From Nucisporomicrobium flavum (lineage in GTDB: Bacteria; Actinomycetota; Actinomycetes; Mycobacteriales; Micromonosporaceae), in contig NZ_JADMLH010000010.1 in NCBI RefSeq assembly GCF_016464385.1, positions 255,593 through 319,592 on the forward strand: a stretch of 64,000 bases of DNA, written 5' to 3'. Every line of letters begins with the position of its first letter. Position 1 is the stretch's first letter. The notes below the pieces were generated by a model that was not told the origin of the DNA, ran no database searches, and saw only the letters and a program-made list of their open reading frames with translations. Positions 1-52,527 of this stretch are shown in pieces. The translations under genes were made by a program, and so were the position numbers.

Positions 1-3000
1 GGCCTCGAGGTCGTCGAACGTGCTGTCGCCGAGGAAGTTCTGCAGCACGTACAGGGTGTCGAAGAGCTGCTCGTGCCCGGCCGCGCGCTGGATGTCGCCC
101 AGGCCGAGATACTCGTGCGGCGCCAGGTCCAGCCGGTCCCGCTGGGCGCGGCGGGCGAGATCCGCGACGGTGTCCGACGGGCTCGCGGCGACCCGGGCCG
201 GCACGGTGTTGAGGAACAGCCCGATGACGTTCTCGATGCCGGGCAGCTCGGTGGGGCGGCCCGCCACGGTCGTGCCGAAGGTGACGTCCCCCCGGCCGGT
301 ACGGTGCCCGAGGACGAGCCCGAGCGCCACGGTGAGCACCGAGTTGAGGGTGATCCCGGCCCGGCGTGCCTGCTCGGTGAGGCGGGTCGTGACCGCGGTC
401 GGGAGCGCGGCGAGCACCCGCTCGGACAGCATCGGCGCGCGTCCGGCGGCCTCCGGCACCACGATCGTCGGCTCGCCCGTCCGCGCTGCCCAGGCGGCCG
501 CGGACGCGTCCCGGTCCTGGGCGTCGATCCAGGCCAGGTAGTCGGTGAAGGACGGGCCGCCGGCGGGCAGGGCGCCCCGGGCGCCACGCGAGTCGTAGAG
601 CGCGAACAGCTCGCGCAGGACCAGCTCGCGCGACCAGCCGTCCCAGAGCAGGAAGTGGCACGTGAGCAGCAGCCGGTCGGTCCCGTCGGGGTTGCGGACC
701 ACGGTCAGCCGGATGAGCGGCGGCTCGGTGAGGTCGAACGGCTTCTCCCGGTCCTCGGCCGCGACCGCCTCCGGGTCGCCCTCGACCACGGTCACGGTTG
801 CCGGGACGCGAGCGGCGATGTGCTGCCGCGGGCGCGGCTCGCCGACGAACGCGGCGCGCAGGGTCGGGTGCCGGTCGAGCAGGGCGGCGAACGCCAGCTC
901 CAGCGCGGGTACGTCGATCCGCCGGTCCAGGTCGAACACGTTCTGCGCGATGTACGTGGCCGCGCCGTCGGTGAACGTGGCCTGGTAGTACACGCCCTGC
1001 TGCAGCGGGGACAGCTCCCACACCTCGCCGGGCTCGTCCGCGGCGATCGCGGCGGCTGTACGGTTCTGGAACACGTCCTGGATGGACACGTCGATGCCGT
1101 CGCGGGCGAGCAGATTCACGAGGCGGATCGCGGTGATGCTGTCACCGCCGCGCGCGAAGAAGTCGTCGTGCACCCCGACCGTCGCGGCGCCCAGCACCTC
1201 GGCGAAACGGGCCACGACCTGGGCCTCGCGCGGCGTCCTCGGCGGTTCGGCCACCGTGGCGGCCGGGTCCGGCAGCGCGCGCCGGTCACGCTTCCCGTTG
1301 GGCAGCAGCGGTACGGCGTCCAGCACGGTGACCGTCGCGGGCACCAGGTACGCCGGCAGCTCGCCGCGCAGCGTGGTGAGCAGGGCCTGCGGGTCCAGCC
1401 GCTCCCCCGGCTCGGGCACGACGTACCCGTGCAGGGTGTTGCGGCGCGCGACCGCGACCGCCTCCCGCACGCCCAGCCGCCGCAGCAGCGCGGCCTCGAC
1501 CTCGGCGAGCTCGACGCGGTGACCGTTGACCTTCACCTGGTCGTCGTTGCGGCCGAGGAACTCGACCCGGTCGCCGATCCAGCGGCCCAGGTCGCCGGTG
1601 CGGTAGAGGCGCTCGCCCGGCAGATGGGGGTCGGCGACGAACCGGGCCGCGGTCGCGCCACCCTGCCCCCGGTAGCCGCGGGCGAGCTGCACGCCGCCGA
1701 CGTAGATCTCGCCCACCGCGCCGGGCGCCACCGGCTCCAGCGCCGCGTCGAGCAGGTGGATGCGGACGCCCGGAACAGCCCGGCCCAGCGTGACGGTTCC
1801 GCCGGGCGTGACGGTTCCGGCCAGCACGTCCCCGGTGTTCTCCGAGGCACCGTACGAGTTGACGATCTCCGCGTTCGGCGACGCGGTGGCCAGTGCGGCA
1901 ACCGTGGCGGCGTCCAGCGCCTCGCCGCTGGTGATCCACCGGCGCAGCCCGCGGACCTGCTCCGGAGCCGTCTCGGCGAGAGCGGAGGCGAGGCTCGGCA
2001 CGGCCAGCAGCTGCGTGGCGCCGGACTCCGCGACCAGCCGGGCCAGCGCGGTTCCGTCGGTCGCGGCGGTCTCGTCGGCGATCACCACGGTGGCGCCGGC
2101 GACGAGGCCGCCGAGCAGCTCGGTGGTGCCATCGATGAAGCTCATCGAGCTCTTCGCGACCCGCACGTCGCCGTCCCACCGCTCGCGTGCCCAGGCAAGA
2201 CGGTTGGCCAGGCCGGCGTGGGTGCCCACGACCGCCTTCGGGCGCCCGGTCGACCCGGAGGTGTAGACGACGGACGCCGCGTCGAGCGGTCCGATCTCGA
2301 CGGCCGGCGCCGCGCCGCGGGCGGTCCGCAGCCGCAGGGACGGCAGGTCGTGCGGGGGCAGTGCGCGCCCGGCGGCGTCGTCGGTGAGCACGCACACCGG
2401 CCGCGCGTCATCGAGCATGAACTCGATCCGCGCCGCCGGGTACGCCGGATCCACCGGCAGGTACGCGGCCCCCGCGCGCAGCACACCGAGCAGCGCGACG
2501 GGCAGGTCGGCCGTACGCCGGGTGGCCACCGCGACCACGTCCCCGCGGCGTACCCCGGCGGCGTGCAGCGCGGCGGCGACCGAGCCGGAACGGGCCCACA
2601 GGTCCGCGTACGTCAGCTCGGCGGCACCGCTGCGCACGGCGATCCGGCCGGGCTCGACCGCCCCGATCAGGTCGGGCACCAACGTCTCGGCGCGGGCCGG
2701 TCCGCCCCTGCCGAGCGCGAGCACTTCGGCGCGTGAAACGTCGGAGAGCAGGTCGATGGCGGCGACCGGGGTGTCGGCAGCCGCGGTGAGCACGCGCACG
2801 TACTGGTCGAGCAGACGCGCGGCGACGGCCGGGTCAAGCCGGTGGGTGAGCGTGACGGTGACGGTGTCCCCCGGCGTCACCATCAGCGTCGCCGGGTAGT
2901 GCGGGGCCTCGACCACGTCCACGCCGGTGATCCGCAGCCCGTCCGCGGCCGGAGCCGACGCAACCGGATAGTTCTCGACGACCACGAGCGTGTCGAACAG

Positions 3001-6000
3001 CTCGGGCAGCCCGGTCCGGCGCTGGATCTCGGCGAGCGAGGTCTGCTCGTGCTCGACCACCGACCGCTGATCCGCGGCGAACCGGGACAGGACGTCGGCC
3101 AGGGTCTCCGAGCCGGACCAGCGGACCCGGGCGGGCACGGTGTTGAGGAGCAGCCCCACCATCGCGTCGATGCCCGGCAGGTCACCGGAGCGCCCGGCCA
3201 CGGCCGAGCCGATCACCACATCGGTGCGGCCGGTGACCCGGCCGACAAGCACCCCCCAGGCGGCGGCGAGGACGTTGCCGGTCGTCACGCCGAGCCGCCG
3301 GGCCACGGCCTGCACGGCCGCGCCGTCCACGGTGGCCGTCACGCTCGCCGCGGGGCCGTTCGCGCCGGGTGCCAGCAGGGTCGGCTCGGTCACGCCGTCG
3401 AGGAGGCGGGCGTACGCGTCCGGGTCGCCCTCGCCGCGCCGGGCCAGGAAGTCCCGGTACGGCGGCGCCGGCGGCAGGGGCTGTCCGGCGTACCGGGCGA
3501 GCAGGCCGGTGAGCATCAGCGGTACGGACCAGCCGTCGGCGACGATGTGGTGCACGGTCTGCACGAGGACGTGCCGGTCGGCGGCGAGGCGGACCAGCGC
3601 GTACCGCATGGCCGGTGGGCGGGCGAGGTCGAACGGGCGGGCGCGCTCGGCGGCCGCAACCCCCGATCCGACCACCCCGCCGCCACCCACAAGCGGACTA
3701 AAGGCCGTCTCCACGTCGCCGGTCTCGACGTACCGCCACGGCGTCTGGACCGGGCCGCCGAGCATGGCCACGACCTCACCGTCACCGGTCGCCCGGAAGG
3801 CGGCCGCGAGGTTGGGGTGGCGGTTGAACAGGTCGGCGGCGGCCCGGTGCAGGCGGTCGGCGTCGAGCGGGCCGTCGAGGTGGATCAGCTGCTGGACCAC
3901 GTACGGGTCGGCGCCCGGCGCGTACGTGGCGTGGAAGTACAGCCCGGCCTGCAACGGGGTCAACGGCAGCACGTCGCGCACGTCCGGCCCGAGCGCGTCC
4001 ACGTCCGGCTGGGTCAGGCGTACGAGCGGGAAGTCCGATGGCGTGTGCCCGGCCACGTCGGGGTCCGCGGCGATCGCCGTGAGGAGTTCCGCCCAGCGGT
4101 CCGCGTACGCCTGAACTGTCTCGCGTGCCAGCGCCTCGCCCGGCCAGCTGAACACGGCGGACAGCTCGGCGCCGACCGTGACCGCGTTGACCTCGAGCGC
4201 CCGGGGCAGCGGCATGCGCGGGTCCCGCCGCTCGACGACCACCTCGCCGTCGTCGAAGCGGCCGAGGTAGTTGAACAGCACCTGCGGCTGGACGGCCAGT
4301 TCGTCGTGGCCGTGCAGGAAGCGCAGGACGCCGTACGAGATGCCGTTGCGGGGAACGGCCCGCAGCTGCTCCTTGACCGCCTTCACCGCGGCGGCCGGCG
4401 CGAGCCCGGTGACATCGAGCGGCACCGGGAAGAGCGTGGTGAACCAGCCGACCGTCCGCGACAGATCGAGATCGGCCATGTCCTCCTCGCGGCCGTGCCC
4501 CTCCAGCTCCAGCAGCAACGGCTCGTCCGGCGAGACCGCCAGCGCCAACGCCGCCACGAGCGCGTCGTTGACCCCGCCATGGATCGCCGCGGGTACGGCG
4601 CTCAGCAGCCGCTCGGTCACCTCGGCGGGCAGGGTGACGGTCAGCGTCTCCTCGGTGGCCACGGTGCCGGTGGCCGCCGGCAGGCCCACCCGTGTCTGCG
4701 CCGCCCGGGTCCAGAACGGCAGATCCGCGCTGACGTCGGCCTCACGCAGCGCCGTGGCCCACTGCCGGAACGAGGTGGGCGCCGGGGCGATCGGCAGGCC
4801 GCCACGCAGGTCTTCGGCGAGCACCCGCAGCGAGACGCCGTCGGCGATCACGTGGTGCAGGGCGACGATCAGCTCGCCGCTCTCCGGCAGATGCGAGAAG
4901 GCGGCCAGCCGTCCGGTGCTCAGCCGGGCAACCGTCGCCTCCAGGTCCTCACCGGTGCGCAGCACGTCCGCGGCTGTCAGCTCACCGGCCGGGCGGACCG
5001 TCAGCACGGCGCCGTCGATGCTCGCCCGCAGCACGTCGTGCGCTTCGAGGAGGCCGTCGATCACCGCGGCGACGTCGCCCGCGGGCGCGGGCAGGGTGAC
5101 GGCCTGGAAGAAGCCGTCGAGCCCGTTCCCGACCTCGTCCAGCCAGGCCAGGATCGGCGTCGGCGGGACCTCGCCGACCGCGTCCACCGCGGCGGCCTCC
5201 GGCTCGTCCTCGGCCACCACCAGGGCGAGCGCGGCCGGGGTCGGGTGGGCGAAGAGGTCGCGGGCCCGCAGCGAGAAACCGGCCCGGCGGGCGGCCCGGA
5301 CCGCGCCGATGGCCACGATGCTGTCGCCGCCGAGCGCGAAGAAGTCGTCCTCCGCGCCGACCGCGTCGAGACCCAGCACGGACGCGAACACCTCACACAG
5401 CCGCGCCTCGGTCTCGGTTCGCGGGCGTCGCGACCGCGAAGGGCCCAGCACCGGGACGGGCAGGGCGCGGCGGTCCACCTTGCCGTTCGCCGTGAGCGGG
5501 AACGCGTCGAGGACCACGAACGCCGACGGGACCATGTACTCCGGGAGCCGGTCGGTACACCAGGCGCGCAGCTCCTCGGGTGTGGCGGGGGCGGACAGGG
5601 TCGCGTACCCGATCAGGTGCCGCTCGTGGACGGTGACGACGGCCTGGCGCACCGCGGGGTGGGTCGCGACGGCGGCCTCGACCTCCTCGAGCTCCAGCCG
5701 CATGCCGCGGATCTTCACCTGGTTGTCGGCGCGCCCGACGAACTCGAGGCTGCCGTCGCCGGTCCACCGGGCCAGGTCACCGGTGCGGTACATGCGCTCG
5801 CCCGGGGCGCCGAACGGGTTGGCGACGAAGCGGGAGCCGGTCAGCGCGGGCGCGTTGACGTACCCGCGGCCGAGCAGGAAGCCGGCCGCGTACAGCTCGC
5901 CGGTGACGCCCGGGCCGACGGGGTTCAGGTCGTCGTCCAGGACGTGCAGCTGCGTGTACGGGTTGGGCCGCCCGATCGACGTGGCGATGCGCTCGGCGGA

Positions 6001-6906
6001 GTCCCGGTAGACGACGTGCGAGACGCCGATCGTCGCCTCGGCGGGGCCGTACCCGTGGTAGAGCGTCGTGGTGAGCTGAGCGCGGAAGCGTTCGAACAGC
6101 TCCGGCGTGAGCACCTCGCCGCCGCACCACACGTGCCGCAGCCCGTCCAGCAGGTGCGTGCCCCGGGCGAGCTGGAGCAGCACGTCGAGCATCGAGCTGA
6201 CCAGGTAGACGAAGGTCACGCCCTCGGTCGCGATGAGGTCGAGCAGGTACTGGGGATCCCGTTCACCGCCGGGCTCGGCCACGACGACGTACCCGCCGGA
6301 GACCAGCGGCAGCAGGATCTCGTTGACGCTGATGTCGAACGACAGCGGCGCCTTGAACAGCGCGGCGTCGCCGGGTCCGAAGTGCAGGATCTCCTCGCGC
6401 TGCCAGCGCAGCCGCTCGTGGATGGCCTCGTGCCGGATCATCGCGCCCTTGGGCCGGCCGGTGGAGCCGGAGGTGAAGATGACATACGCGAGCTGCCCGG
6501 GCGCGACGGCCACGCCGGGTGCTGCGGCGGTGCCGGCCGGGACGTCGGCGACGGTCAGGACCAGTTTTGCCCGGGCGTCGGCGAGGACCTGCTCGCGGCG
6601 GCGGTCCGGCCAGGCCGGGTCGACCGGGACGAACGCCCCGCCCGCGACCATCGTGGCCAGCACCGCGATCACCATCTCGGCCGAGCGCGGCATGCCGATG
6701 CCCACCACGTCCTCCGGCCCGACGCCGCGTTCCCGCAGGTCCCGGGCGAGCGCGTAGACCCGGCCGCTGAGCTCCGCGTACGTCAGCCGGGTCTCGCCCG
6801 CGACGAGCGCGAGGGCGTCCGGGGTCCGGGCCGCCCGGTCCCGGAAGGCCTCTACCACCGTGGCGGTCGTGGCGGGGCGGGTGGGGTCCTGCAGGCCGGC
6901 CGTCAT
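1..6906 (-). CDS. Siderophore-type non-ribosomal peptide synthetase, 5' part (partial)
   Basis: The gene runs off the left edge with no stop; about 2,302 codons are present from the ATG at 6906. Domains in order: A1 (residues ~10-480, FTSGSTGRPKG, closing NGK lysine), T1 (GGDSI near 527), epimerization domain (~580-1010, HHVIADGVS and NYLGRFD), C2 (~1030-1450, intact HHIVADGWS), A2 (~1470-1890), T2 (GGDSI near 1922) and C3, cut by the edge. A1 pocket residues aligned by eye to GrsA read D-I-N-Y-W-G-G-I-G, which I recall as the code for N5-hydroxy- or formyl-hydroxy-ornithine. With no C domain before A1, this is a starter module making a D-residue, as in coelichelin-type synthetases. An iron box lies 58 bp upstream, and MbtH, exporters and an importer are adjacent. 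The siderophore assignment is inference but well supported. A2 specificity was not assigned. Confidence 0.93.
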   Translation of the reverse strand, partial: MTAGLQDPTRPATTATVVEAFRDRAARTPDALALVAGETRLTYAELSGRVYALARDLRERGVGPEDVVGIGMPRSAEMVIAVLATMVAGGAFVPVDPAWPDRRREQVLADARAKLVLTVADVPAGTAAAPGVAVAPGQLAYVIFTSGSTGRPKGAMIRHEAIHERLRWQREEILHFGPGDAALFKAPLSFDISVNEILLPLVSGGYVVVAEPGGERDPQYLLDLIATEGVTFVYLVSSMLDVLLQLARGTHLLDGLRHVWCGGEVLTPELFERFRAQLTTTLYHGYGPAEATIGVSHVVYRDSAERIATSIGRPNPYTQLHVLDDDLNPVGPGVTGELYAAGFLLGRGYVNAPALTGSRFVANPFGAPGERMYRTGDLARWTGDGSLEFVGRADNQVKIRGMRLELEEVEAAVATHPAVRQAVVTVHERHLIGYATLSAPATPEELRAWCTDRLPEYMVPSAFVVLDAFPLTANGKVDRRALPVPVLGPSRSRRPRTETEARLCEVFASVLGLDAVGAEDDFFALGGDSIVAIGAVRAARRAGFSLRARDLFAHPTPAALALVVAEDEPEAAAVDAVGEVPPTPILAWLDEVGNGLDGFFQAVTLPAPAGDVAAVIDGLLEAHDVLRASIDGAVLTVRPAGELTAADVLRTGEDLEATVARLSTGRLAAFSHLPESGELIVALHHVIADGVSLRVLAEDLRGGLPIAPAPTSFRQWATALREADVSADLPFWTRAAQTRVGLPAATGTVATEETLTVTLPAEVTERLLSAVPAAIHGGVNDALVAALALAVSPDEPLLLELEGHGREEDMADLDLSRTVGWFTTLFPVPLDVTGLAPAAAVKAVKEQLRAVPRNGISYGVLRFLHGHDELAVQPQVLFNYLGRFDDGEVVVERRDPRMPLPRALEVNAVTVGAELSAVFSWPGEALARETVQAYADRWAELLTAIAADPDVAGHTPSDFPLVRLTQPDVDALGPDVRDVLPLTPLQAGLYFHATYAPGADPYVVQQLIHLDGPLDADRLHRAAADLFNRHPNLAAAFRATGDGEVVAMLGGPVQTPWRYVETGDVETAFSPLVGGGGVVGSGVAAAERARPFDLARPPAMRYALVRLAADRHVLVQTVHHIVADGWSVPLMLTGLLARYAGQPLPPAPPYRDFLARRGEGDPDAYARLLDGVTEPTLLAPGANGPAASVTATVDGAAVQAVARRLGVTTGNVLAAAWGVLVGRVTGRTDVVIGSAVAGRSGDLPGIDAMVGLLLNTVPARVRWSGSETLADVLSRFAADQRSVVEHEQTSLAEIQRRTGLPELFDTLVVVENYPVASAPAADGLRITGVDVVEAPHYPATLMVTPGDTVTVTLTHRLDPAVAARLLDQYVRVLTAAADTPVAAIDLLSDVSRAEVLALGRGGPARAETLVPDLIGAVEPGRIAVRSGAAELTYADLWARSGSVAAALHAAGVRRGDVVAVATRRTADLPVALLGVLRAGAAYLPVDPAYPAARIEFMLDDARPVCVLTDDAAGRALPPHDLPSLRLRTARGAAPAVEIGPLDAASVVYTSGSTGRPKAVVGTHAGLANRLAWARERWDGDVRVAKSSMSFIDGTTELLGGLVAGATVVIADETAATDGTALARLVAESGATQLLAVPSLASALAETAPEQVRGLRRWITSGEALDAATVAALATASPNAEIVNSYGASENTGDVLAGTVTPGGTVTLGRAVPGVRIHLLDAALEPVAPGAVGEIYVGGVQLARGYRGQGGATAARFVADPHLPGERLYRTGDLGRWIGDRVEFLGRNDDQVKVNGHRVELAEVEAALLRRLGVREAVAVARRNTLHGYVVPEPGERLDPQALLTTLRGELPAYLVPATVTVLDAVPLLPNGKRDRRALPDPAATVAEPPRTPREAQVVARFAEVLGAATVGVHDDFFARGGDSITAIRLVNLLARDGIDVSIQDVFQNRTAAAIAADEPGEVWELSPLQQGVYYQATFTDGAATYIAQNVFDLDRRIDVPALELAFAALLDRHPTLRAAFVGEPRPRQHIAARVPATVTVVEGDPEAVAAEDREKPFDLTEPPLIRLTVVRNPDGTDRLLLTCHFLLWDGWSRELVLRELFALYDSRGARGALPAGGPSFTDYLAWIDAQDRDASAAAWAARTGEPTIVVPEAAGRAPMLSERVLAALPTAVTTRLTEQARRAGITLNSVLTVALGLVLGHRTGRGDVTFGTTVAGRPTELPGIENVIGLFLNTVPARVAASPSDTVADLARRAQRDRLDLAPHEYLGLGDIQRAAGHEQLFDTLYVLQNFLGDSTFDDLEA

Positions 6907-6963
6907 CCGTGGCGCACCTTTCGACGTGGACCCGCGCGAGGCGGGGCGTCACGCGACGCGGAC

Positions 6964-6980
6964 TTAGGCTAGCCTAACCT
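6964..6980 (-). promoter_or_regulatory. Iron box (DmdR1/IdeR type) for the NRPS gene
   Basis: The 14-bp perfect palindrome TTAGGCTAGCCTAA lies at 6964-6977 and closely matches the actinobacterial iron-box consensus (TTAGGTTAGGCTAACCTAA). It is 58 bp before the NRPS start and overlaps the last codons of the exporter gene ending at 6969. Iron-loaded DtxR-family repressors bind such sites, so iron starvation should switch on the synthetase. Confidence 0.85.
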
Positions 6981-8720
6981 TCTCTCCGCCGTCGTGGGGG
7001 CCCGGGACTCCCAGGCCGACCAGAGCGCGGCGTACCGGCCGCCGGCGGCGACCAGCTCGGCGTGCGTACCGGACTCCACGATGGAGCCGTGGTCGAGCAC
7101 GATGACGCGGTCGGCCGACGCCGCCTGGGTCAGCCGGTGCGCCACCACGAGCGTCGTCCGGCCCTTCGTCGCCGCCGCGGCCGCCTCCTCGAGCACCCGG
7201 GCGCCCGAGCTCCCGGCCTCCGCGGTCGCCTCGTCGAGCACCACGACCGCCGGATCCAGCAGCACGAGCCGGGCGAGCGCGAGGTGCTGCGCCTGCGCGG
7301 CGGTCAGCTCGTGACCGCCCTCGCCGACGACCGTGTCCAGCCCGTCCGGCAGGGCGCGCGTCCACCCGAGCGCGCCGGCCGTCTCCAGCGCCGCCTCGAC
7401 GTCCGCCCGGTCCGCGCCCGGGCGGGCCAGCCGCAGGTCCTCCAGCAGCGGACCGGCGAAGACGTGCGTCTCCTGGCTGATCAGGGCCACCGTCCGCGCG
7501 GGCAGGTCCCGGACCGGTACGCCCCCCACCCGCGCCTCACCCCCGCCGGGCCGCAGGATGCCGGCCGCGATCGAGGCGGCCGTGGTCTTCCCGGCACCCG
7601 TCGAGCCCACGAGCGCGACCCGCTCCCCCGCCTCCACCCGCAGCGACACGTCGTGCAGCACCGGGGTCACGCCGTCGTAGCTGAAGCTCACGCCGTCCAG
7701 GGTCAGGGCGGCATCGCCCGGCGCCCGGCCGGCCGCGGGGTCCGGGGTGGACATCCGCAGCACCCCGACCAGGCGTCCCAGGCTCGCCCCGGCGGCCTGC
7801 ACCTCGTCGAAGGTGAACAGCAGCGTCGAGACCGGGTTGAACAGCCGGTGGAACAGCAGGGCCGCCGCCGAGGTCTCGCCGACGCTCACCGACCCGTCGC
7901 GGACCAGCAGGAACCCCACGACGAGGATCGCGGCCAGCCCCACGAACTCGGCGCGGTTGACCCGGCCGACGAAGCGCGTGAAGAGCGTGAAGACGTCCAC
8001 CGAGATGTCGCGGGCCCGGCCCGAGGCGCCGTCGAGGTCGCGCAGGTGCCGGTCCTCCAGCCGGTACGCGTGCACGGTCCGCAGCCCCTGCATGCTCTCC
8101 ACGAGCAGCTGCGAGCGTTCCGCCACGGCCGCGCGCTCCTGGGCGTACCGGGGGGCCGACCGCGGCAGGTACCAGCGCAGCGCGATCACGTACAGCGGGA
8201 CGGCGACCGCGCCGGCCAGCCCGAGCCGCCAGTCGATCCCCGCCATCGCGGCGAGACTGAGGACGGCGAGCAGGAACGCCGAGATCACCTGCGGCAGCAC
8301 GTCCGAGACCGCCTTGCCGATCGCCGCGATGTCCGCGCCGACCCGGGACAGCAGGTCGCCGCGCCCGGCCCGGTCCAGCACCAGCGCGGGCAGCCGCAAC
8401 GCCGTCGCCACGGTGCTCTCGCGCAGGTCGGCGAGCATCCGCGCGCCCAGCCGTCCGATCAGGTACGTCGACAGCCCCATCGCCGCCCCGCCGGCCAGCG
8501 CGGCCACCACGATCACCACGGCGACGGGCACGATCGCCGACGCGCCGGCGTTCTCGCGGACCCGGTCGACCAGCAGGCCGAGGGCGTACACGGGCACGAT
8601 CGAGGCGGCGGCCGCGAGCACGCCGGCCAGCAGCGTGCCGGCCACCTCGGCCCGGCGGCCGCGCAGCTCGGCACGCAGCCAGGCGCGGCTCTCCCGCGCG
8701 GTGGCGATCGGCAGGGTCAT
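6969..8720 (-). CDS. ABC exporter half-transporter (TMD-NBD), siderophore locus, subunit with intact Walker A
   Basis: 583 residues: an N-terminal six-helix ABC exporter domain (~25-310) and a nucleotide-binding domain. Walker A is intact (GSTGAGKTT, 372-380), as is Walker B (VVVLDEAT, 492-499), but the signature loop reads LTAAQ (472-476) instead of LSGGQ. The start ATG overlaps the stop of the upstream exporter gene by 4 bp, so the two are translationally coupled and probably form a heterodimer. From context it probably moves the siderophore across the membrane; fused pairs of this type also include the mycobacterial importer IrtAB, so direction is not settled by sequence. The last codons (L-G-stop) lie inside the NRPS iron box. 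Confidence 0.9.
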   Translation of the reverse strand: MTLPIATARESRAWLRAELRGRRAEVAGTLLAGVLAAAASIVPVYALGLLVDRVRENAGASAIVPVAVVIVVAALAGGAAMGLSTYLIGRLGARMLADLRESTVATALRLPALVLDRAGRGDLLSRVGADIAAIGKAVSDVLPQVISAFLLAVLSLAAMAGIDWRLGLAGAVAVPLYVIALRWYLPRSAPRYAQERAAVAERSQLLVESMQGLRTVHAYRLEDRHLRDLDGASGRARDISVDVFTLFTRFVGRVNRAEFVGLAAILVVGFLLVRDGSVSVGETSAAALLFHRLFNPVSTLLFTFDEVQAAGASLGRLVGVLRMSTPDPAAGRAPGDAALTLDGVSFSYDGVTPVLHDVSLRVEAGERVALVGSTGAGKTTAASIAAGILRPGGGEARVGGVPVRDLPARTVALISQETHVFAGPLLEDLRLARPGADRADVEAALETAGALGWTRALPDGLDTVVGEGGHELTAAQAQHLALARLVLLDPAVVVLDEATAEAGSSGARVLEEAAAAATKGRTTLVVAHRLTQAASADRVIVLDHGSIVESGTHAELVAAGGRYAALWSAWESRAPTTAERRLG

Positions 8721-10396
8721 CGGAGCACCATCCGGCGGTAGGAGTCGTGCGTGCCGCTCAGCTCGGCGTGCCCGCCCTCGGCGGCGACCTCGCCGTCACC
8801 CAGGACCACGACCCGGTCCGTGGCGGCGAGCAGCGCGGGGCTGGTGGTGATCACGATCGTGGCGAAGGCCGAGCCCGGGCCGTGCCGCAGCGCCCGGATG
8901 CCCTCCGCGACGGCGTGCTCGGTGACGGCGTCCACGGCGGTGGTCGGGTCGTGCAGGACGAGCACGGGCGGCCTGGCGAGCAGGGCGCGGGCCAGGGCGA
9001 GCCGCTGGCGCTGGCCGCCGGAGAGGCTGGCGCCGCGCTCGGCGACCTTCGTGTCGAGGCCGGCGACCTCGTCGGCCGCCGCCGCGCTGAGCGCCTCCGC
9101 GAGCCCGGCGTCGCCGTGCGGGGCCACGTTCCCCGCGATCGTGCCGGTGAAGAGGTCGGCGTGGTGCGGCTCCACCAGCAGCAGCCGGCGGGCGTGCTCC
9201 CGGTCGATCGTCTCGAGCGGCTCGCCGCCGAGCAGCACCTCCCCCTGATACCCGGCCGGTACGGCGAGCAGCCGCACCAGCGCCTCCGCGTCGGCGGGGC
9301 GGCGGGTGGCCACGCCGACGAACTCGCCAGGCCGTACGTGCAGGTCGAGGCCGGCGAGCGGGCCGTGCCGCACCCCGGTCAGGCGCAGGTCGCAGCCGTC
9401 CGCCGCGGGCGTCGCGATGCCCTCCGGCAGCACCATCCCGGCGGCCGTCACCTGCGCGACCCGGTCGGCCGACGCACGCGCCTCGGCGATCCAGCTCGGG
9501 ACGACCGCCAGCAGCCCGAACGGCTCGACGAGGAACTGGGCGGAGCCGATGACGGTGATGAACTGGCCCACGGTGATCCGGCCGGTCAGCGCGAACCAGC
9601 CGGCGAGGATCGCGACGCCGCAGGCCAGCAGCGTGCTCAGGGTGGTGGAGGCGGCGAGGTAGCCGCCCTGGGTCCGGGCAGCACGCAGGGTTGCGGCCAG
9701 CGACCGCCGGCTCACCGCGTGGTAGCGCTCGGCCGCCGCGTCCTGGGCGCCGATGCCGCGCAGCGGCCGCAGGCCGGTGACCAGGTCGGTGGCGAGCGAG
9801 GTGGCACGGCCGGCCTGTTCCTGCTGGTCGGCGACGCGCCGGGTGATCACCGGCGAGCTGACCTGCAGCACCACCAGCACGAGCGGCGTGGCGACCAGCA
9901 CGGCCAGCCCCAGCGGTACGGAGATCAGCAGCAGCGTCACCGCGCTGATGGCGGTGGCCACGATCGCCCCGGCGATCCGGGGAACGTAGTCCAGCAGGTA
10001 CGACGTGTTGTCGGCGTCGCTCGTGGACACCGTGAGCAGGTCACCGGTGCGCATGCCGGTACGGGCCCCGCGCGGGTGCAGGATCTTCGCCGCCACCTCC
10101 AGCCGCAGCAGGTGCGCCTCCTCGGCGATGGCGCGCATGAGCTGCCGCGCCCCCAGCCGGTACGCCGTCGTCAGCAGCACGAACAGCACGCCGAGCGCCG
10201 CCACCCACAGCGCGAGCGCGGTCCCGTCGCCCGGGGTGACGGCGGTGTCGACCACCACGCCGATGAGGATCGGGATGGCGGCCTCGCAGGCCTGGTGCAC
10301 GCCGATCAGCGCGGTCCCGGGCCAGAGCCGCCGGCCGTTGCGGGTGATCGTCCGGCGCAGGATGCGACCGCCGGAGCGGCTCAGCGACTCATTCAC
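8717..10396 (-). CDS. ABC exporter half-transporter (TMD-NBD), siderophore locus, subunit with degenerate Walker A
   Basis: 559 residues with a six-helix membrane domain (~25-310) and a nucleotide-binding domain. The Walker A position reads [11 protein letters not shown] (361-371), lacking the GK[ST] core, and Walker B ends HDP (482-484) instead of DEP. The signature LSGGQ (458-462) is intact. This is complementary to the partner gene downstream, so the dimer would keep one complete ATP site. The GTG start overlaps the mbtH-like stop by 4 bp (GTGA). Members of this family are often annotated as siderophore exporters; the substrate is inferred from the locus. Confidence 0.9.
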
Positions 10397-10605
10397 CGCG
10401 CCATGCTGTCGCGCAGGCTCTTCGGGCGCAGGTCGGTCCAGTGCTCGTCCACGTAGTCCAGGGCCTCCTGCCGCGACGACGGGCCGAAGACGCTGCGCCA
10501 GCCCGACGGGATCTCCTTGAACGCCGGCCAGAGGGAGTGCTGCTCCTCGTCGTTCACCAGGACGTGGAAGGTGCCGTTCTCGTCGTCGAACGGGTTGCTG
10601 GACAC
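10393..10605 (-). CDS. MbtH-like NRPS accessory protein
   Basis: 70 residues, normal length for the family. The conserved signature is visible: NPFDDENG near the start, HSLWPAF, PSGW, then the C-terminal WTDLRP. MbtH-like proteins bind adenylation domains and support their folding and activity, so the partner is the NRPS three genes downstream. The GTG start at 10605 is preceded by GAAGGAG at a good distance. It is first in an operon with the two exporter genes, 30 bp downstream of an iron box. Confidence 0.96.
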
Positions 10606-10634
10606 GCGGACTCCTTCAGGGGCGGGGTTAGCCA

Positions 10635-10651
10635 GGTAAGGCTAGCCTAAG
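10635..10651 (-). promoter_or_regulatory. Iron box for the mbtH-exporter operon
   Basis: The core GGCTAGCC flanked by TAA on both sides (10637-10650) matches the other two boxes in this locus. It sits 30 bp upstream of the mbtH-like GTG and covers the stop codon of the upstream ATPase gene (TAG at 10642-10644). Confidence 0.8.
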
Positions 10652-11424
10652 CCGGAGCGCGGAATGACCATCGGGGTGTGCGTCTCCGGGTCGTCGATGA
10701 TCCGGCAGCCCAGCCCGAACACCCGCTCCACCAGGGCCGCGGTCAGCACCTCGCGGGGATCGCCCTGGGCCACCACGGCACCGGACCGCATCACGACGAG
10801 GTGGTCGGCGTACCGGGCCGCCTGGTTCAGGTCGTGCAGCACCGCCACCATCGTCGTGCCCTGCTCGCGGTTGAGGCGTACGCACAGCTCCAGCAGCTCG
10901 ATCTGATGGGCGATGTCCAGAAACGTCGTGGGCTCGTCGAGCAGCACGATCGGGGTCTGCTGGGCGAGCACCATGGCCACCCAGACGCGCTGCCGCTGGC
11001 CGCCGGAGAGCGTGTCGACGAGCTCGCCGGAGAGGTCACCGACGCCCGTGGCGGCCATCGCGGCGACCACGGCCGCCTCGTCCTCCGGCGACCACTGCCG
11101 GATCAGCTTCTGGTGCGGGAACCGCCCCCGGGCGACCAGCTCCGCCACCGAGATGCCGTCCGGCGCGATCGACGACTGCGGCAGCAGCCCGAGCCGGCGC
11201 GCGACCTCCTTGGCGGGTCGCGCGTGGATGTCCCGCCCGTCCAGCAGCACCGCGCCGGCCGACGGCTTGAGCAGCCGGGACAGCGCGCGCAGCAGCGTCG
11301 ACTTCCCGCACGCGTTCGGGCCGATGATCGCCGTGAACCGGCCGGCCGGCAGGTCCAGGTCGAGGTGCTCGGAGATCGTCCGGCGGTCGTAGCCGATCGT
11401 GATGTCGCGCGCTGCCAAGGTCAC
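10642..11424 (-). CDS. Ferric-siderophore ABC transporter ATP-binding protein (FecE/FepC type)
   Basis: 260 residues with Walker A GPNACGKST (~35-43), Q-loop LLPQ, signature LSGGQRQR, Walker B IVLLDEPT and the switch histidine in VLHDLNQ. The layout and length are those of FepC/FhuC/BtuD-like ATPases that power ferric-siderophore uptake. It begins 10 bp after the stop of the second permease and completes a permease-permease-ATPase operon. The final codons TTA-GGC-TAG are part of the next operon's iron box. No periplasmic-binding-type lipoprotein gene is adjacent. Confidence 0.95.
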   Translation of the reverse strand: MTLAARDITIGYDRRTISEHLDLDLPAGRFTAIIGPNACGKSTLLRALSRLLKPSAGAVLLDGRDIHARPAKEVARRLGLLPQSSIAPDGISVAELVARGRFPHQKLIRQWSPEDEAAVVAAMAATGVGDLSGELVDTLSGGQRQRVWVAMVLAQQTPIVLLDEPTTFLDIAHQIELLELCVRLNREQGTTMVAVLHDLNQAARYADHLVVMRSGAVVAQGDPREVLTAALVERVFGLGCRIIDDPETHTPMVIPRSGLG

Positions 11425-50288: not shown

Positions 50289-50359
50289 GCCGACCATCAT
50301 GCCCGAGAACATCGTCACGGCTTCTCACAGACTGCTGACCGATGCCGACTGAGGTGGTC

Positions 50360-50938
50360 ATGCGGCTCAGCAGCGGGCGGCCCGCCGACGACGGGTTCAC
50401 GATCATCGAGGTGATGGTCGCGCTCGCCCTCATCAGCACGGTGATGGCCGCGCTCGGCACGTACTTCGTGTCGTCGGCGCGTACGAGTCGCTATCAGGCC
50501 CAGATCCAGACCGCGACGCGCCTCGCCCAGAGCGGGATGGAGGCCGCTCGCGGATTCGGCGGGCCGACCCTGCTCGTCGGGCGCGCGCAGTGCGGCGCCT
50601 GCACCGACGTGAGCGGCTTCGACTCCCTGGGCTACCTGTCCGACACCGTGCGCTGGGACGCGCCCGTGGCCGCCGTGACGGCGACCGTGCCGCTTCCGGA
50701 CGTCGCGGAGATCACCTCCGTCAACGGCGTCTCCTACTACCGCTACTACTTCGTCGGACGCTGCTGGCAGGCGTCCGGCGGCGGCCGGTGCGGCGTGAAC
50801 AACGCGCTGCCCGCGGCGATGGTCCGGCTCGTCGTCGGCGTCGCCTGGCGCTCCCCCGACTGCCGCCACGCCGTGTGCATCCGCGCCGCCACCTCGCTGT
50901 TCAGCGCGGACCCGTCCGACCCGGTGTTCGCGCAGTGA
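50360..50938 (+). CDS. PilV-like type IV (pseudo)prepilin
   Basis: 192 residues from ATG 50360 with GAGGTGG just upstream; an ATG at 50342 is the alternative. A short leader ends in Gly12, followed by FTIIEVMVALALISTVMAAL, the class III prepilin signature with Glu at +5. The C-terminal part has two Cys clusters (CGAC; CW..RCG..CRHAVC). It would need a prepilin peptidase and assembly motor, which are not nearby. The stop overlaps the next start (GTGA). Confidence 0.88.
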   Translation: MRLSSGRPADDGFTIIEVMVALALISTVMAALGTYFVSSARTSRYQAQIQTATRLAQSGMEAARGFGGPTLLVGRAQCGACTDVSGFDSLGYLSDTVRWDAPVAAVTATVPLPDVAEITSVNGVSYYRYYFVGRCWQASGGGRCGVNNALPAAMVRLVVGVAWRSPDCRHAVCIRAATSLFSADPSDPVFAQ

Positions 50939-52527
50939 TCCGCCGGGCCGTCTCCCGGGCCACCGGCGACCGCGGTTCGCTGCCCATGGCGATGCTGCTG
51001 ATCCTCGTCGGCGTGTCGCTCAGCGGCCTGCTCGCCGCCGCGGTGTCCGCGCAGATCTCCGGCACCCGCGCGACCGTGCACAGCTCCGAGGCCCTGGACG
51101 CGGCACAGTCCGGCATCGACGTCGCCCTGGGCCAGATCCGCCTCGCCGTCACCGACGGGGCAGGCGACCCGGCGAAGCTGCCCTGCGGCCCGTTCACCGG
51201 CGCGGTCAACACCGCCACCGACCAGTCGTACACCGTCGCCATCTTCTATCTGCGCACGCAGCCGCCCGCCGGAGACGTCGGCTGGGCGCAGGCCAACAAG
51301 ATGACGTGCACGGGCAGCCACCTGTCAGGGGCGGAAACCCCCGTCTACGTCCTGCTCTCGTCGACCGGTCGCGCTCTGGACACCGGAGGAACAACTGCTC
51401 CACGTACGGTCACAGCGACGTACACGATGCACAGCACCACCCGCGAGAACGTCGCCGGCGGACTCGTGCACGTTCTCGGGCAGAACAACCCCGACCTGTG
51501 CTTCTCCGCGCCCGGCAAAACGCCGGTGGCCGGTGCGCCGCTGACCCTGCAGGTGTGCGACAGCAACGACGACCGGCAGAAGTTCGCGTACGTGTCGAAC
51601 CTGAACCTGGTCCTGGTGGCCTCCCGCGCGGACGGCTCGACAGGCATGTGCCTGGACGCGGCGCCGGTGCACGGCGAGCAGGTCGTCTTCCGTCCCTGCG
51701 CCGACCCGACCGCGGAACAGCAGCAGTGGAGCCTGAACGACCGCGCGAACTTCGAGGGCACCAAGAACGCCGTGCGCGACCAGCAGTGCTTCCATGTGGT
51801 CAGCCCGGGGATCGCCGGGAGCACGATCGTGCTGCACGCGGCCGCCAATGACCCGGCCGGCGTCTCGCAGTACGACAAGGCCTGCGGAGACGACTACACC
51901 GTCACCCGCAGCTTCCAGCCGGAGGCGGCCGTCGGAACCGGCGGCGCGGGCGCCAGGAGCAACCAGTTGGTGAACTTCGAGCAGTTCGGCCGCTGCTTCG
52001 ACGTCTCGGGCAACGACGTGTCCGAGAAGTACATGGTCATCTGGCCGTGCAAGCAGAGCCCCAACGGCGTCGTGCAGTGGAACCAGGTCTGGCACCTGCC
52101 GGCGATCCCGGACGGACACAGCAGCGGTACGGGCGTCATCTGGCTGCACAGCGACCAGGACAACCGCACCTACTGCCTCAGCAGCCCCGGCTGGCTCAAC
52201 CCGCCCGGCTACGCCCCGGCGACCGCGTCGTACCCGAAGCTGGTCACCTGCGACCCGACGGCACCCGCCACCCTCGCGACCACGTGGACGCGCCGCGGTG
52301 CCACGGGCGTGTTCGCCACCGCGTACCGGATCGAGACGACGTACGGCGCCCCGACCGGGACCGCCTGGTGCCTCGCCCCCACCGACACCGCGTACGACTA
52401 CTGGTACACGGGCAACAAGGACGTCAGCAAAGGCACGCTGGCGGTCTGCGACGGCACGCGCGGCCAGAAGTGGAACGCGGACCCGATGGTGCTCAGCTCC
52501 GCGGTGAGCGACGTCAGCGAGAAGTGA
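50935..52527 (+). CDS. Pilin-operon membrane-anchored protein with ricin-type beta-trefoil region
   Basis: 530 residues from the GTG at 50935, coupled to the pilin-like gene. Residues 14-45 form a hydrophobic PilX-like N-terminal helix (GSLPMAMLLILVGVSLSG) without a clear Glu+5. Residues ~190-525 look like one or two ricin-B lectin trefoils: CFSAPGK and TGMCLDAAP starts, and QxW-type motifs EQQQWS (~261), NQVWHL (~385) and GQKWN (~510). Probably a surface carbohydrate-binding tip or accessory. The sugar is unknown. Ends 14 bp inside the convergent acetyltransferase gene. Confidence 0.82.
   Translation: MIRRAVSRATGDRGSLPMAMLLILVGVSLSGLLAAAVSAQISGTRATVHSSEALDAAQSGIDVALGQIRLAVTDGAGDPAKLPCGPFTGAVNTATDQSYTVAIFYLRTQPPAGDVGWAQANKMTCTGSHLSGAETPVYVLLSSTGRALDTGGTTAPRTVTATYTMHSTTRENVAGGLVHVLGQNNPDLCFSAPGKTPVAGAPLTLQVCDSNDDRQKFAYVSNLNLVLVASRADGSTGMCLDAAPVHGEQVVFRPCADPTAEQQQWSLNDRANFEGTKNAVRDQQCFHVVSPGIAGSTIVLHAAANDPAGVSQYDKACGDDYTVTRSFQPEAAVGTGGAGARSNQLVNFEQFGRCFDVSGNDVSEKYMVIWPCKQSPNGVVQWNQVWHLPAIPDGHSSGTGVIWLHSDQDNRTYCLSSPGWLNPPGYAPATASYPKLVTCDPTAPATLATTWTRRGATGVFATAYRIETTYGAPTGTAWCLAPTDTAYDYWYTGNKDVSKGTLAVCDGTRGQKWNADPMVLSSAVSDVSEK

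What the first reader, a model, noticed from the sequence alone, without database searches (positions are those of the whole stretch)
50360..52527. Two-gene unit: pilin-like protein plus membrane-anchored ricin-type lectin
A PilV-like class III prepilin is translationally coupled to a PilX-like protein whose C-terminal ~340 residues resemble ricin-B trefoils. No pilus motor, prepilin peptidase or major pilin is nearby. This could be a minimal, lectin-tipped surface fibre or an adhesive minor-pilin cartridge used by a pilus system elsewhere, possibly for polysaccharide attachment or spore/mycelium adhesion.
Basis: partly seen in the sequence, partly recalled or inferred. Interest (0 to 1): 0.65.

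Follow-up and report, generated by a model that had tools for sequence, protein, structure and literature searches.

The report
Second lectin tip for spore pili
This pair of genes most likely makes an extra sugar-binding tip for the type IV pili of a soil bacterium that probably makes swimming spores and keeps its pilus motor genes elsewhere in the genome; it matters because it suggests which part of the pilus could choose what a spore sticks to.

Summary
Window 50360-52527 holds two genes overlapping by four bases: a PilV-like prepilin and a PilX/GspK-like prepilin without Glu5 that carries two ricin-type lectin domains. The genome has a full type IVa pilus locus on another contig, ending in its own PilV, PilW and lectin-PilX; the window pair is a diverged paralogue without PilW. 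In 250 genomes of the family, lectin-PilX occurs in 84 and this type of PilC in 85, together in 83; all 84 have flagellin. In the class, 12 of 13 further lectin-PilX loci lie beside pil genes. Seven orthologous pairs sit at one chromosomal site behind CTCA-N16-GCCGA, a flagellar-sigma-like promoter also seen before flagellin and, more loosely, pilB. Relatives have lost the pair, two leaving remnants. Best reading: an accessory tip-adhesin cassette of a FliA-controlled spore pilus, assembled by the remote machinery. Sugar binding and tip location are inferred; both AlphaFold jobs failed. It is a new variant of the known 'modular pilin' kind; four directed searches of the held open-access library listed no ricin-type pilin (two of those listings were capped, and the key Actinoplanes pilus paper is not held).

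The parts
50324..50351 (+). predicted flagellar-sigma (FliA/WhiG-type) promoter: -35 CTCA 50324-50327, 16-nt spacer, -10 GCCGACTG 50344-50351; 8 nt before the ATG, so the transcript may be leaderless
   Evidence: same element with the same 16-nt spacing in 7 of 7 orthologues; looser form upstream of pilB in 16 of 20 and of flagellin in 13 of 15
50360..50938 (+). PilV-like class III prepilin (192 aa from ATG 50360), short form without the Ig-like domains of its motor-locus paralogue
   Evidence: PF07963 and TIGR02532 over cut-off; 32% identical to motor-locus PilV
50935..52527 (+). PilX/GspK-like prepilin with C-terminal lectin (530 aa), GTG start overlapping the pilV stop by 4 nt
   Evidence: 34% identical to motor-locus PilX-lectin
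50935..51036 (+). predicted leader peptide (cleavage after Gly14), then hydrophobic helix with Ala, not Glu, at mature position 5
   Evidence: G-S invariant in the 43 rows of alignment A3; residue 5 is Ala in 42 and Val in 1
51448..51924 (+). ricin-type trefoil 1 (about residues 172-330; lobes C189-C208, C239-C255, C285-C317)
   Evidence: PF00652; PDB profile hits are ricin-type lectins; invariant cysteines
51967..52482 (+). ricin-type trefoil 2 (about residues 345-516; lobes C354-C372, C414-C439, C479-C505); the first of these lobes keeps likely sugar-site residues
   Evidence: 35 of 41 relatives match PF00652 at E <= 0.01 in this part alone, the window itself at 16.9 bits, below cut-off; PDB profile hits; Asp at C+2 in 42 of 43, aromatic two before the second Cys in 42 of 43

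Best explanation
The pair is an accessory minor-pilin cassette of the type IVa pilus that this actinomycete (probably zoospore-forming, by kinship and flagellin) encodes elsewhere. Steps: (1) a FliA/WhiG-type sigma factor switches the pair on together with pilB and flagellin when motile spores are made (inferred from conserved promoters); (2) the two prepilins are made from coupled genes and processed by the remote PilD (inferred from prepilin motifs and paralogy); (3) the Glu5-lacking PilX-like subunit caps a minor-pilin complex with PilV, probably borrowing PilW from the motor locus, and primes the pilus made by PilB, PilC and PilA (inferred from the usual V-W-X set and from what is known of Glu5-less caps); (4) its two ricin-type trefoils are thereby shown at the pilus tip and bind a glycan, at least through the first lobe of the second trefoil (inferred from conserved residues). 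As a second, diverged and dispensable set beside the motor-locus V-W-X set, it gives the pilus an alternative or additional binding specificity. Shown here by computation: the genes, paralogy, co-occurrence, shared site, promoter element, purifying selection and losses.
For: Machinery and paralogues in the same genome: L004 pilB, T, C, A, D, M, N, O, V, W, X; PilX 34%, PilV 32% identical. Co-occurrence in 250 family genomes: lectin-PilX 84, PilC 85, both 83; the three exceptions are assemblies 77-86% complete. Flagellin over cut-off in all 84 and in three others. In the class, 13 of 14 lectin-PilX genomes have a PilC match at E <= 1e-20, one of them weak; 12 of 13 loci lie beside pil genes. 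Promoter: CTCA-N16-GCCGA in 7 of 7 orthologues; the looser pattern before pilB in 16 of 20, before separated cassettes in 10 of 16 and in 1.1% of random 200-nt windows, and before flagellin in 13 of 15. Same site in 7 of 7; dN/dS 0.09-0.54. Lectin. Genome G119 has V-W but no X at its motor locus, and the only X genes found in it are the window-type one and a lone distant one.
Against: Gene 2 has no N_methyl, PilX or GspK family hit, so processing by PilD is inferred from a Gly-Ser and a hydrophobic stretch. The pair lacks PilW in 7 of 7, whereas 18 of 19 other separated units mapped carry V, W and X. AlphaFold gave no usable model. QxW/F follows the second Cys in few relatives in two of six lobes (10 and 15 of 43), so several lobes are probably not sugar sites. 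In six class members, of four families, lectin-PilX occurs without a flagellin match, so the zoospore link is not general; and 75 of 88 class genomes with a PilC match have no lectin match. The strict promoter form is found in only 4 of 20 pilB and 4 of 16 cassette upstreams. The genome also has a Tad-type ATPase. The published zoospore-pilus phenotype is adhesion to hydrophobic surfaces (PMC8325347, passage), not to sugars.
Confidence: 0.72

Rival explanations
1. The pair is a T4P minor-pilin set as above, but the trefoils are structural or bind protein (a cap or spacer), not sugar.
For: Degenerate lobes: QxW/F in only 10 of 43 (lobe 1-gamma) and 15 of 43 (lobe 2-beta) relatives; published zoospore-pilus phenotype is adhesion to hydrophobic surfaces.
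Against: Lobe 2-alpha keeps Asp at C+2 in 42 of 43, an aromatic residue two before the second Cys in 42 of 43, and nearly invariant W-N-Q, the residue kinds that make the sugar site in ricin-type lectins (recalled).
Confidence: 0.17
2. The pair builds a minimal fibre or surface display of its own, without the T4P machinery.
For: No motor, peptidase or major pilin next to it in the window.
Against: No major pilin; paralogues of both genes sit in pil loci; near-perfect co-occurrence with PilC in the family; shared promoter class.
Confidence: 0.04
3. The pair serves the Tad pilus encoded on contig C45.
For: A T2SSE ATPase that reads as CpaF, next to a gene that reads as CpaE, is present there (the names are recalled).
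Against: Apart from the window type and one lone X, the relatives mapped lie beside type IVa pil genes or in V-W-X cassettes. Tad genes were not among the queries of those maps.
Confidence: 0.03
4. The pair is a decaying duplicate with no present function in this genome.
For: Relatives have lost it; G149 and G182 keep only fragments.
Against: Intact in 7 genomes, dN/dS 0.09-0.54, promoter spacing identical in 7 of 7, 12 invariant cysteines kept.
Confidence: 0.04

Closest known systems
PilA-PilC (with PilB) minor-pilin complex of Streptococcus sanguinis T4P, with a lectin-bearing modular pilin (PMC9934059, PMC8179133; passages seen)
   Same: Monoderm type IV pilus; a large minor pilin with a C-terminal lectin module, stabilised by a small minor pilin; modelled at the tip.
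   Different: S. sanguinis PilC has a concanavalin-A-like lectin, shown to bind glycans; here two ricin-type trefoils on a Glu5-less PilX/GspK-like pilin, binding untested. The S. sanguinis genes lie in its pil locus; here the cassette is separate and additional.
HIJK minor-pilin tip complex of T4aP and T2SS, capped by a subunit lacking Glu5 (PMC10191384; passages seen)
   Same: Set of minor pilins with a Glu5-lacking member as the likely cap.
   Different: Three members (V, W, X), or two here, and the presumed cap itself carries a lectin. A PilC/PilY1-like tip protein was not searched for.
Interchangeable 'Tip' complexes of the Kil/Tad pilus of Myxococcus xanthus (PMC12075869; abstract and passages seen)
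   Same: Several separate gene clusters of minor pilins with variable domains serve one pilus.
   Different: Tad rather than type IVa; prey killing rather than, as inferred here, spore adhesion; interchange has genetic support there and is only inferred here.
Zoospore type IV pili of Actinoplanes missouriensis (Kimura et al. 2019; paper not held, known from a citing passage in PMC8325347)
   Same: Related organism; type IV pili and flagella under WhiG-like flagellar sigma factors; adhesion of spores.
   Different: Whether its minor pilins or a lectin were described could not be checked.
Ricin-type beta-trefoil lectins / CBM13 (PF00652)
   Same: Cysteine-paired lobes, QxW motifs, Asp after the first Cys in some lobes.
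   Different: Fused to a pilin; two trefoils; two of six lobes degenerate.

Membership tests
Type IV minor pilin, PilV-like (gene 1) | class III signal peptide G-F-x3-E plus hydrophobic helix | tested here: met
   PF07963 29.6 bits (cut-off 21.2), TIGR02532 26.3 bits (cut-off 16.3)
Type IV minor pilin, PilV-like (gene 1) | match to the curated PilV model TIGR02523 | tested here: not met
   12.7 bits against 52.2; the name is by position and paralogy only
Modular pilin (Raynaud et al. 2021) | N-terminal IPR012902 prepilin signature on the protein that carries the extra domain | tested here: not met
   gene 2 has no PF07963 or TIGR02532 match (used here in place of IPR012902); it has Gly-Ser and a hydrophobic stretch without Glu5. 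A survey that demands the signature would probably miss this family
Modular pilin (Raynaud et al. [quoted passage not shown]
   PF00652 over cut-off; 43 of 43 relatives match at E <= 0.01
Modular pilin (Raynaud et al. 2021) | incorporated in the filament | not testable with these tools
   needs microscopy or purified pili
PilX/GspK-like cap pilin | prepilin lacking Glu5, encoded with other minor pilins | tested here: met
   Ala 42, Val 1 at position 5 in 43 relatives; encoded after V(-W) in the mapped sets except one (L050, order W-X-V) and one lone X (L064)
PilX/GspK-like cap pilin | match to a PilX or GspK family model | tested here: not met
   no hit in Pfam or NCBIfam at E <= 1 (filters drop most matches above 0.1); so 'works like', not 'is'
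Ricin-type beta-trefoil lectin (PF00652) | sequence match over the curated cut-off | tested here: met
   50.3 bits against 29 for trefoil 1. Trefoil 2 alone: window 16.9 bits, below cut-off; 35 of 41 relatives match at E <= 0.01
Ricin-type beta-trefoil lectin (PF00652) | beta-trefoil fold | tested here: inconclusive
   AlphaFold with 4 sequences: pLDDT 27.1 (whole) and 38.4 (trefoil 1); no fold search was run
Ricin-type beta-trefoil lectin (PF00652) | sugar binding | not testable with these tools
   likely site residues kept in lobe 2-alpha
FliA/WhiG regulon | flagellar-type promoter upstream | tested here: met
   CTCA-N16-GCCGA in 7 of 7 orthologues. The -35 departs from the published TAAA; the -10 resembles GCCGATAA (PMC8325347); flagellin upstreams show the same form in 13 of 15
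FliA/WhiG regulon | dependence of transcription on the sigma factor | not testable with these tools
   needs RNA from sigma mutants; one FliA_WhiG gene over cut-off and three at 174-189 bits exist in the genome

The most novel reading that the evidence does not exclude
Zoospore pili of Actinoplanes-type bacteria carry exchangeable sugar-reading tips: one motor, one major pilin, and one to five V(-W)-X lectin sets, many of them scattered over the chromosome, under the flagellar sigma factor, so that a spore population displays a repertoire of tip lectins that decides on which pollen, chitin, plant or microbial surface each spore lands. The window's W-less pair would be a minimal two-subunit version that docks onto the PilW of the motor locus.
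Probability: 0.35. Interest if true: 0.78.

Novelty: new variant of a known kind. Interest (0 to 1): 0.6.

Why it matters
Type IV pili on swimming spores of rare actinomycetes are known to help spores stick, but the passages I saw do not name the sticking part. This work points to one protein family, a Glu5-less pilin with two ricin-type trefoils, as a candidate: in the family it occurs with the pilus and flagella almost without exception, it recurs beside pil genes in other families of the class, and it has been moved and multiplied as small cassettes. That makes 'what do zoospores recognise?' directly testable with a deletion and a glycan array, and offers a natural system for studying how pilus tips diversify. 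It also suggests that surveys of modular pilins that require the usual prepilin signature miss Glu5-less members.

Tried and rejected
AlphaFold on gene 2 (4 sequences; pLDDT 27.1) and on trefoil 1 alone (pLDDT 38.4): unusable, so no fold search was made. Profile of the four close orthologues against the PDB: no hit; the 43-sequence profile succeeded. Relatives in viral contigs: none confirmed in one scan. PilV against the PDB: one hit at E 0.47, not used. Kimura et al. 2019 is not held.

Considered and rejected: a recent duplicate of the motor-locus set (in the tree the seven window-type proteins are one clade, 100/99, apart from the motor-linked copies of two of the same genomes, G000 and G188, the only two of the seven included; it joins the separated cassettes of G230, G194 and G204 at 95/89; long branches are present and deeper placement is unsure); an own fibre; the Tad system; a dead gene.

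Rows dropped before counting: G042 from the lectin set (E 4.6e-6 inside a 4045-aa frame); G017, G027, G038 and G042 from the family PilC set (165-197 bits, 29-32% identity; the kept ones score over 500); G042 from flagellin (below cut-off). In the class count no PilC row was dropped, so the weak G255 match (163 bits, 30%) is among the 13. Of 56 PilX frames collected, second copies of the same gene were left out of the tree (47 rows); alignment A3 (43 rows) also leaves out two short ones and two orthologues (L016, L046); A5 (41 rows) leaves out two more. Rows of A3 were mostly cut at a Gly-Ser/Thr motif found by pattern, so the invariance of that motif is partly by construction. Promoter pattern A was shaped after seeing pilB and window upstreams and, in the same output, the cassettes; so 10 of 16 is not a blind test. 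Flagellin upstreams were scanned over 300 nt, the others over 200 nt.
Full report
WHAT IS THERE. Gene 1 (ATG 50360 to stop 50938) is a class III prepilin; Pfam N_methyl scores 29.6 bits against 21.2. Gene 2 (GTG 50935 to stop 52527) overlaps it by four bases, GTGA, which suggests coupled translation. Gene 2 starts with a short basic leader ending in Gly14, then SLPMAMLLILVGVSLSGLLAA, and carries a Ricin_B_lectin domain (50.3 bits against 29). The neighbours read as pepN, a GNAT, obgE, rpmA and rplU (names recalled, no family search); none looks like a pilus gene.

THE PILUS IS ELSEWHERE IN THE GENOME. The assembly (9.02 Mb, 50 contigs) has a type IVa pilus locus on contig C13: pilB, pilT, pilC, pilA, pilD, pilM, pilN, pilO, then a PilV with four He_PIG Ig-like domains, a PilW, and a second PilX-lectin. 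Pfam was run on B, C, A, D, O, V, W and X; T was hit by PF00437; M and N are named by reading and position, and W by position (N_methyl 17.3 bits, below 21.2). A search of the genome with PilX finds itself and the C13 paralogue; PilV finds itself, the C13 paralogue (1.1e-15) and three hits at E 0.015-0.8. PilX is 34% and PilV 32% identical to the C13 copies. A second kind of ATPase, reading as Tad CpaF, lies on C45.

DISTRIBUTION. In 250 genomes of the family, lectin-PilX is found in 84 and the PilC of this type in 85, together in 83. The exceptions are two with PilC only (82 and 86% complete) and one with PilX only (77% complete). Flagellin is over cut-off in 87 of 250: all 84, the two PilC-only genomes, and one more. 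The same 61 same-genus genomes are listed with matches in all three searches; genomes without a match were only partly printed, so whether the draw holds others of the genus was not seen. These counts follow phylogeny, so the Fisher value should not be taken at face value. In 394 genomes of the class, a profile of 43 members finds relatives over most of its length in 14 genomes of six families; 13 of the 14 have a PilC match at E <= 1e-20, one of them weak (G255), while 75 of the 88 genomes with such a PilC match have no lectin match. The 14th, G262, shows pilA, V, W, X, D, M and O on one 8.5-kb contig. Eight of the 14 have flagellin over cut-off; six have no flagellin match. Of 13 loci looked at, 12 lie beside pil genes; in one only a V-W-X set was seen in 13 kb.

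CASSETTES. In 20 motor loci mapped, 10 end in V-W-X, 9 show no such set in the stretch fetched (their X genes lie elsewhere), and one (G119) has V-W but no X. In one search, 89 PilX matches in 60 family genomes lie more than 15 kb from PilC or on another contig; 11 genomes have both kinds and 49 only the separate kind. This overstates separation where draft contigs end, and counts a few fragments. Of 26 separated units mapped, 18 are full V-W-X sets (one in the order W-X-V), 7 are the window type V-X without W, and one is a lone X in G119. The X genes found in G119 are only the window-type one and the lone one, so its V-W set must use an X from another locus if it needs one. This suggests that subunits from different loci work together; it is one genome.

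THE WINDOW TYPE. The pair sits between pepN and GNAT-obgE in the seven genomes found to have it, among them Pseudosporangium ferrugineum, Winogradskya humida and W. consettensis. In a tree of 47 PilX proteins the seven form one clade (100/99), apart from the motor-linked copies of G000 and G188, so this is not a recent duplicate. dN/dS is 0.11-0.54 for X and 0.09-0.49 for V over 21 pairs each. At the same site in 12 other species of the genus, two keep fragments (G149 of X; G182 of V), five have pepN next to GNAT or obgE with about 40-84 bp between matches, and five have an unrelated gene that reads like a tryptophanyl-tRNA synthetase (the name is recalled). The pair was therefore probably present in the ancestor of a subclade and lost repeatedly: it is an accessory.

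PROMOTER. Just upstream of ATG 50360 lies CTCA-N16-GCCGACTG. The same element with the same spacing stands before all seven orthologues, 7 or 8 nt from the likely start (in the window a GTG at 2 nt is also in frame). A looser form, CT[CA]A-N15-17-[GT]CCGA, is found within 200 nt upstream of pilB in 16 of 20, of the separated cassettes in 10 of 16, of V inside motor loci in 2 of 10, of the second set in tandem cassettes in 0 of 2, and in 1.1% of random 200-nt windows; the strict form in 4 of 20 pilB and 4 of 16 cassettes. Flagellin upstreams, a positive control scanned over 300 nt, have the looser form in 13 of 15. The published flagellar consensus is TAAA and GCCGATAA, and in A. [quoted passage not shown] The genome has one FliA_WhiG gene over cut-off and three just below it. 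So the pair most likely belongs to the zoospore regulon.

THE LECTIN. All 43 aligned relatives match Ricin_B_lectin at E <= 0.01. Twelve cysteines are invariant and can be read as six pairs, three for each of two trefoils. The family profile hits ricin-type lectins in the PDB, best ebulin at 5.7e-10. The second half alone also does, more weakly: best 3.6e-5 as a sum of short stretches; of 21 hits at E <= 1, one (an antibody chain, E 0.56) is plainly unrelated; 35 of 41 relatives match PF00652 there. QxW or QxF follows the second cysteine in 42, 37, 10, 34, 15 and 43 of 43 relatives for lobes 1-alpha to 2-gamma. Lobe 2-alpha keeps Asp two residues after the first cysteine in 42 of 43 and an aromatic residue two before the second in 42 of 43 (Trp in 34), followed by nearly invariant W-N-Q. 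From recalled knowledge of ricin-type sites, this is the lobe most likely to bind sugar. AlphaFold with four sequences gave no usable model, so the fold rests on sequence.

HOW IT WORKS. A Gly-Ser opens the hydrophobic stretch in the 43 aligned relatives, and mature position 5 is Ala (42) or Val (1), never Glu. Tip complexes of minor pilins are described as capped by a subunit without Glu5 (PMC10191384, passages). In S. sanguinis a lectin-bearing modular pilin, stabilised by a small partner, is modelled at the pilus tip (PMC9934059, passages). The simplest reading is that PilX-lectin is such a cap, PilV its partner, and PilW, missing here, is lent by the motor locus. Work on Myxococcus Kil pili supports one pilus taking different tip complexes from separate gene clusters (PMC12075869, abstract and passages).

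WHAT IS KNOWN. The survey of modular pilins asked for the N-terminal signature IPR012902 on the same protein (PMC8179133, passages); gene 2 has no match to the corresponding Pfam and NCBIfam models, so its family would probably be missed. In the held open-access library, the listings of four directed searches showed no report of a ricin-type pilin: modular pilin and lectin (20 of 61 papers listed), actinobacterial minor pilin and ricin (15 of 27 listed), ricin and pilin (10 of 10 listed), and zoospore, pili, actinomycete and lectin (no paper). Three more searches on Actinoplanes pili led to papers cited here. Kimura et al. 2019 is not held, so prior mention there cannot be excluded.

VERDICT. 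Observation confirmed. An accessory lectin-bearing minor-pilin cassette of the type IVa pilus is the best explanation (0.72). New variant of a known kind; interest 0.6.

Noticed in passing
L004:6760-8496 (contig C13 motor locus): The motor-locus PilV carries four He_PIG (PF05345) Ig-like stretches after its pilin part, one of the frequent modular-pilin architectures named in PMC8179133; the window PilV has none.
   Followed up: partly
L004:8544-8741; also L073:7561-7713 and L079:10712-10894: A small conserved ORF (about 65 aa) lies in the pil locus of the subclade, twice between pilO and pilV and once after pilW; function unknown.
   Followed up: no
L073 and L064 (genome G119): The motor locus of G119 has V-W but no lectin-PilX, and a lone diverged PilX-lectin sits elsewhere beside a hydrolase-like gene (reading recalled): a natural test of mixing subunits from different loci.
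   Followed up: partly
L120 (G250), 5170-6105: Two pilA-like genes in a row in a pil locus of another family whose order is pilB-T-C-A-A-V-W-X-D-M-N-O.
   Followed up: no
G208:C1:445801-446988 and G210:C9:19763-20953: A second, distant PilC-like gene (27-28% identity) in two species of the genus, perhaps another type IV filament system.
   Followed up: no
window 1-11424: A very long frame that reads like a non-ribosomal peptide synthetase, a 70-aa MbtH-like gene and ABC transporter genes: perhaps a siderophore cluster (resemblance recalled, no family search made).
   Followed up: no
L147-L151, between GNAT and pepN: In five more distant species of the genus the site of the pair holds a gene that reads like a tryptophanyl-tRNA synthetase instead (name recalled).
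   Followed up: partly
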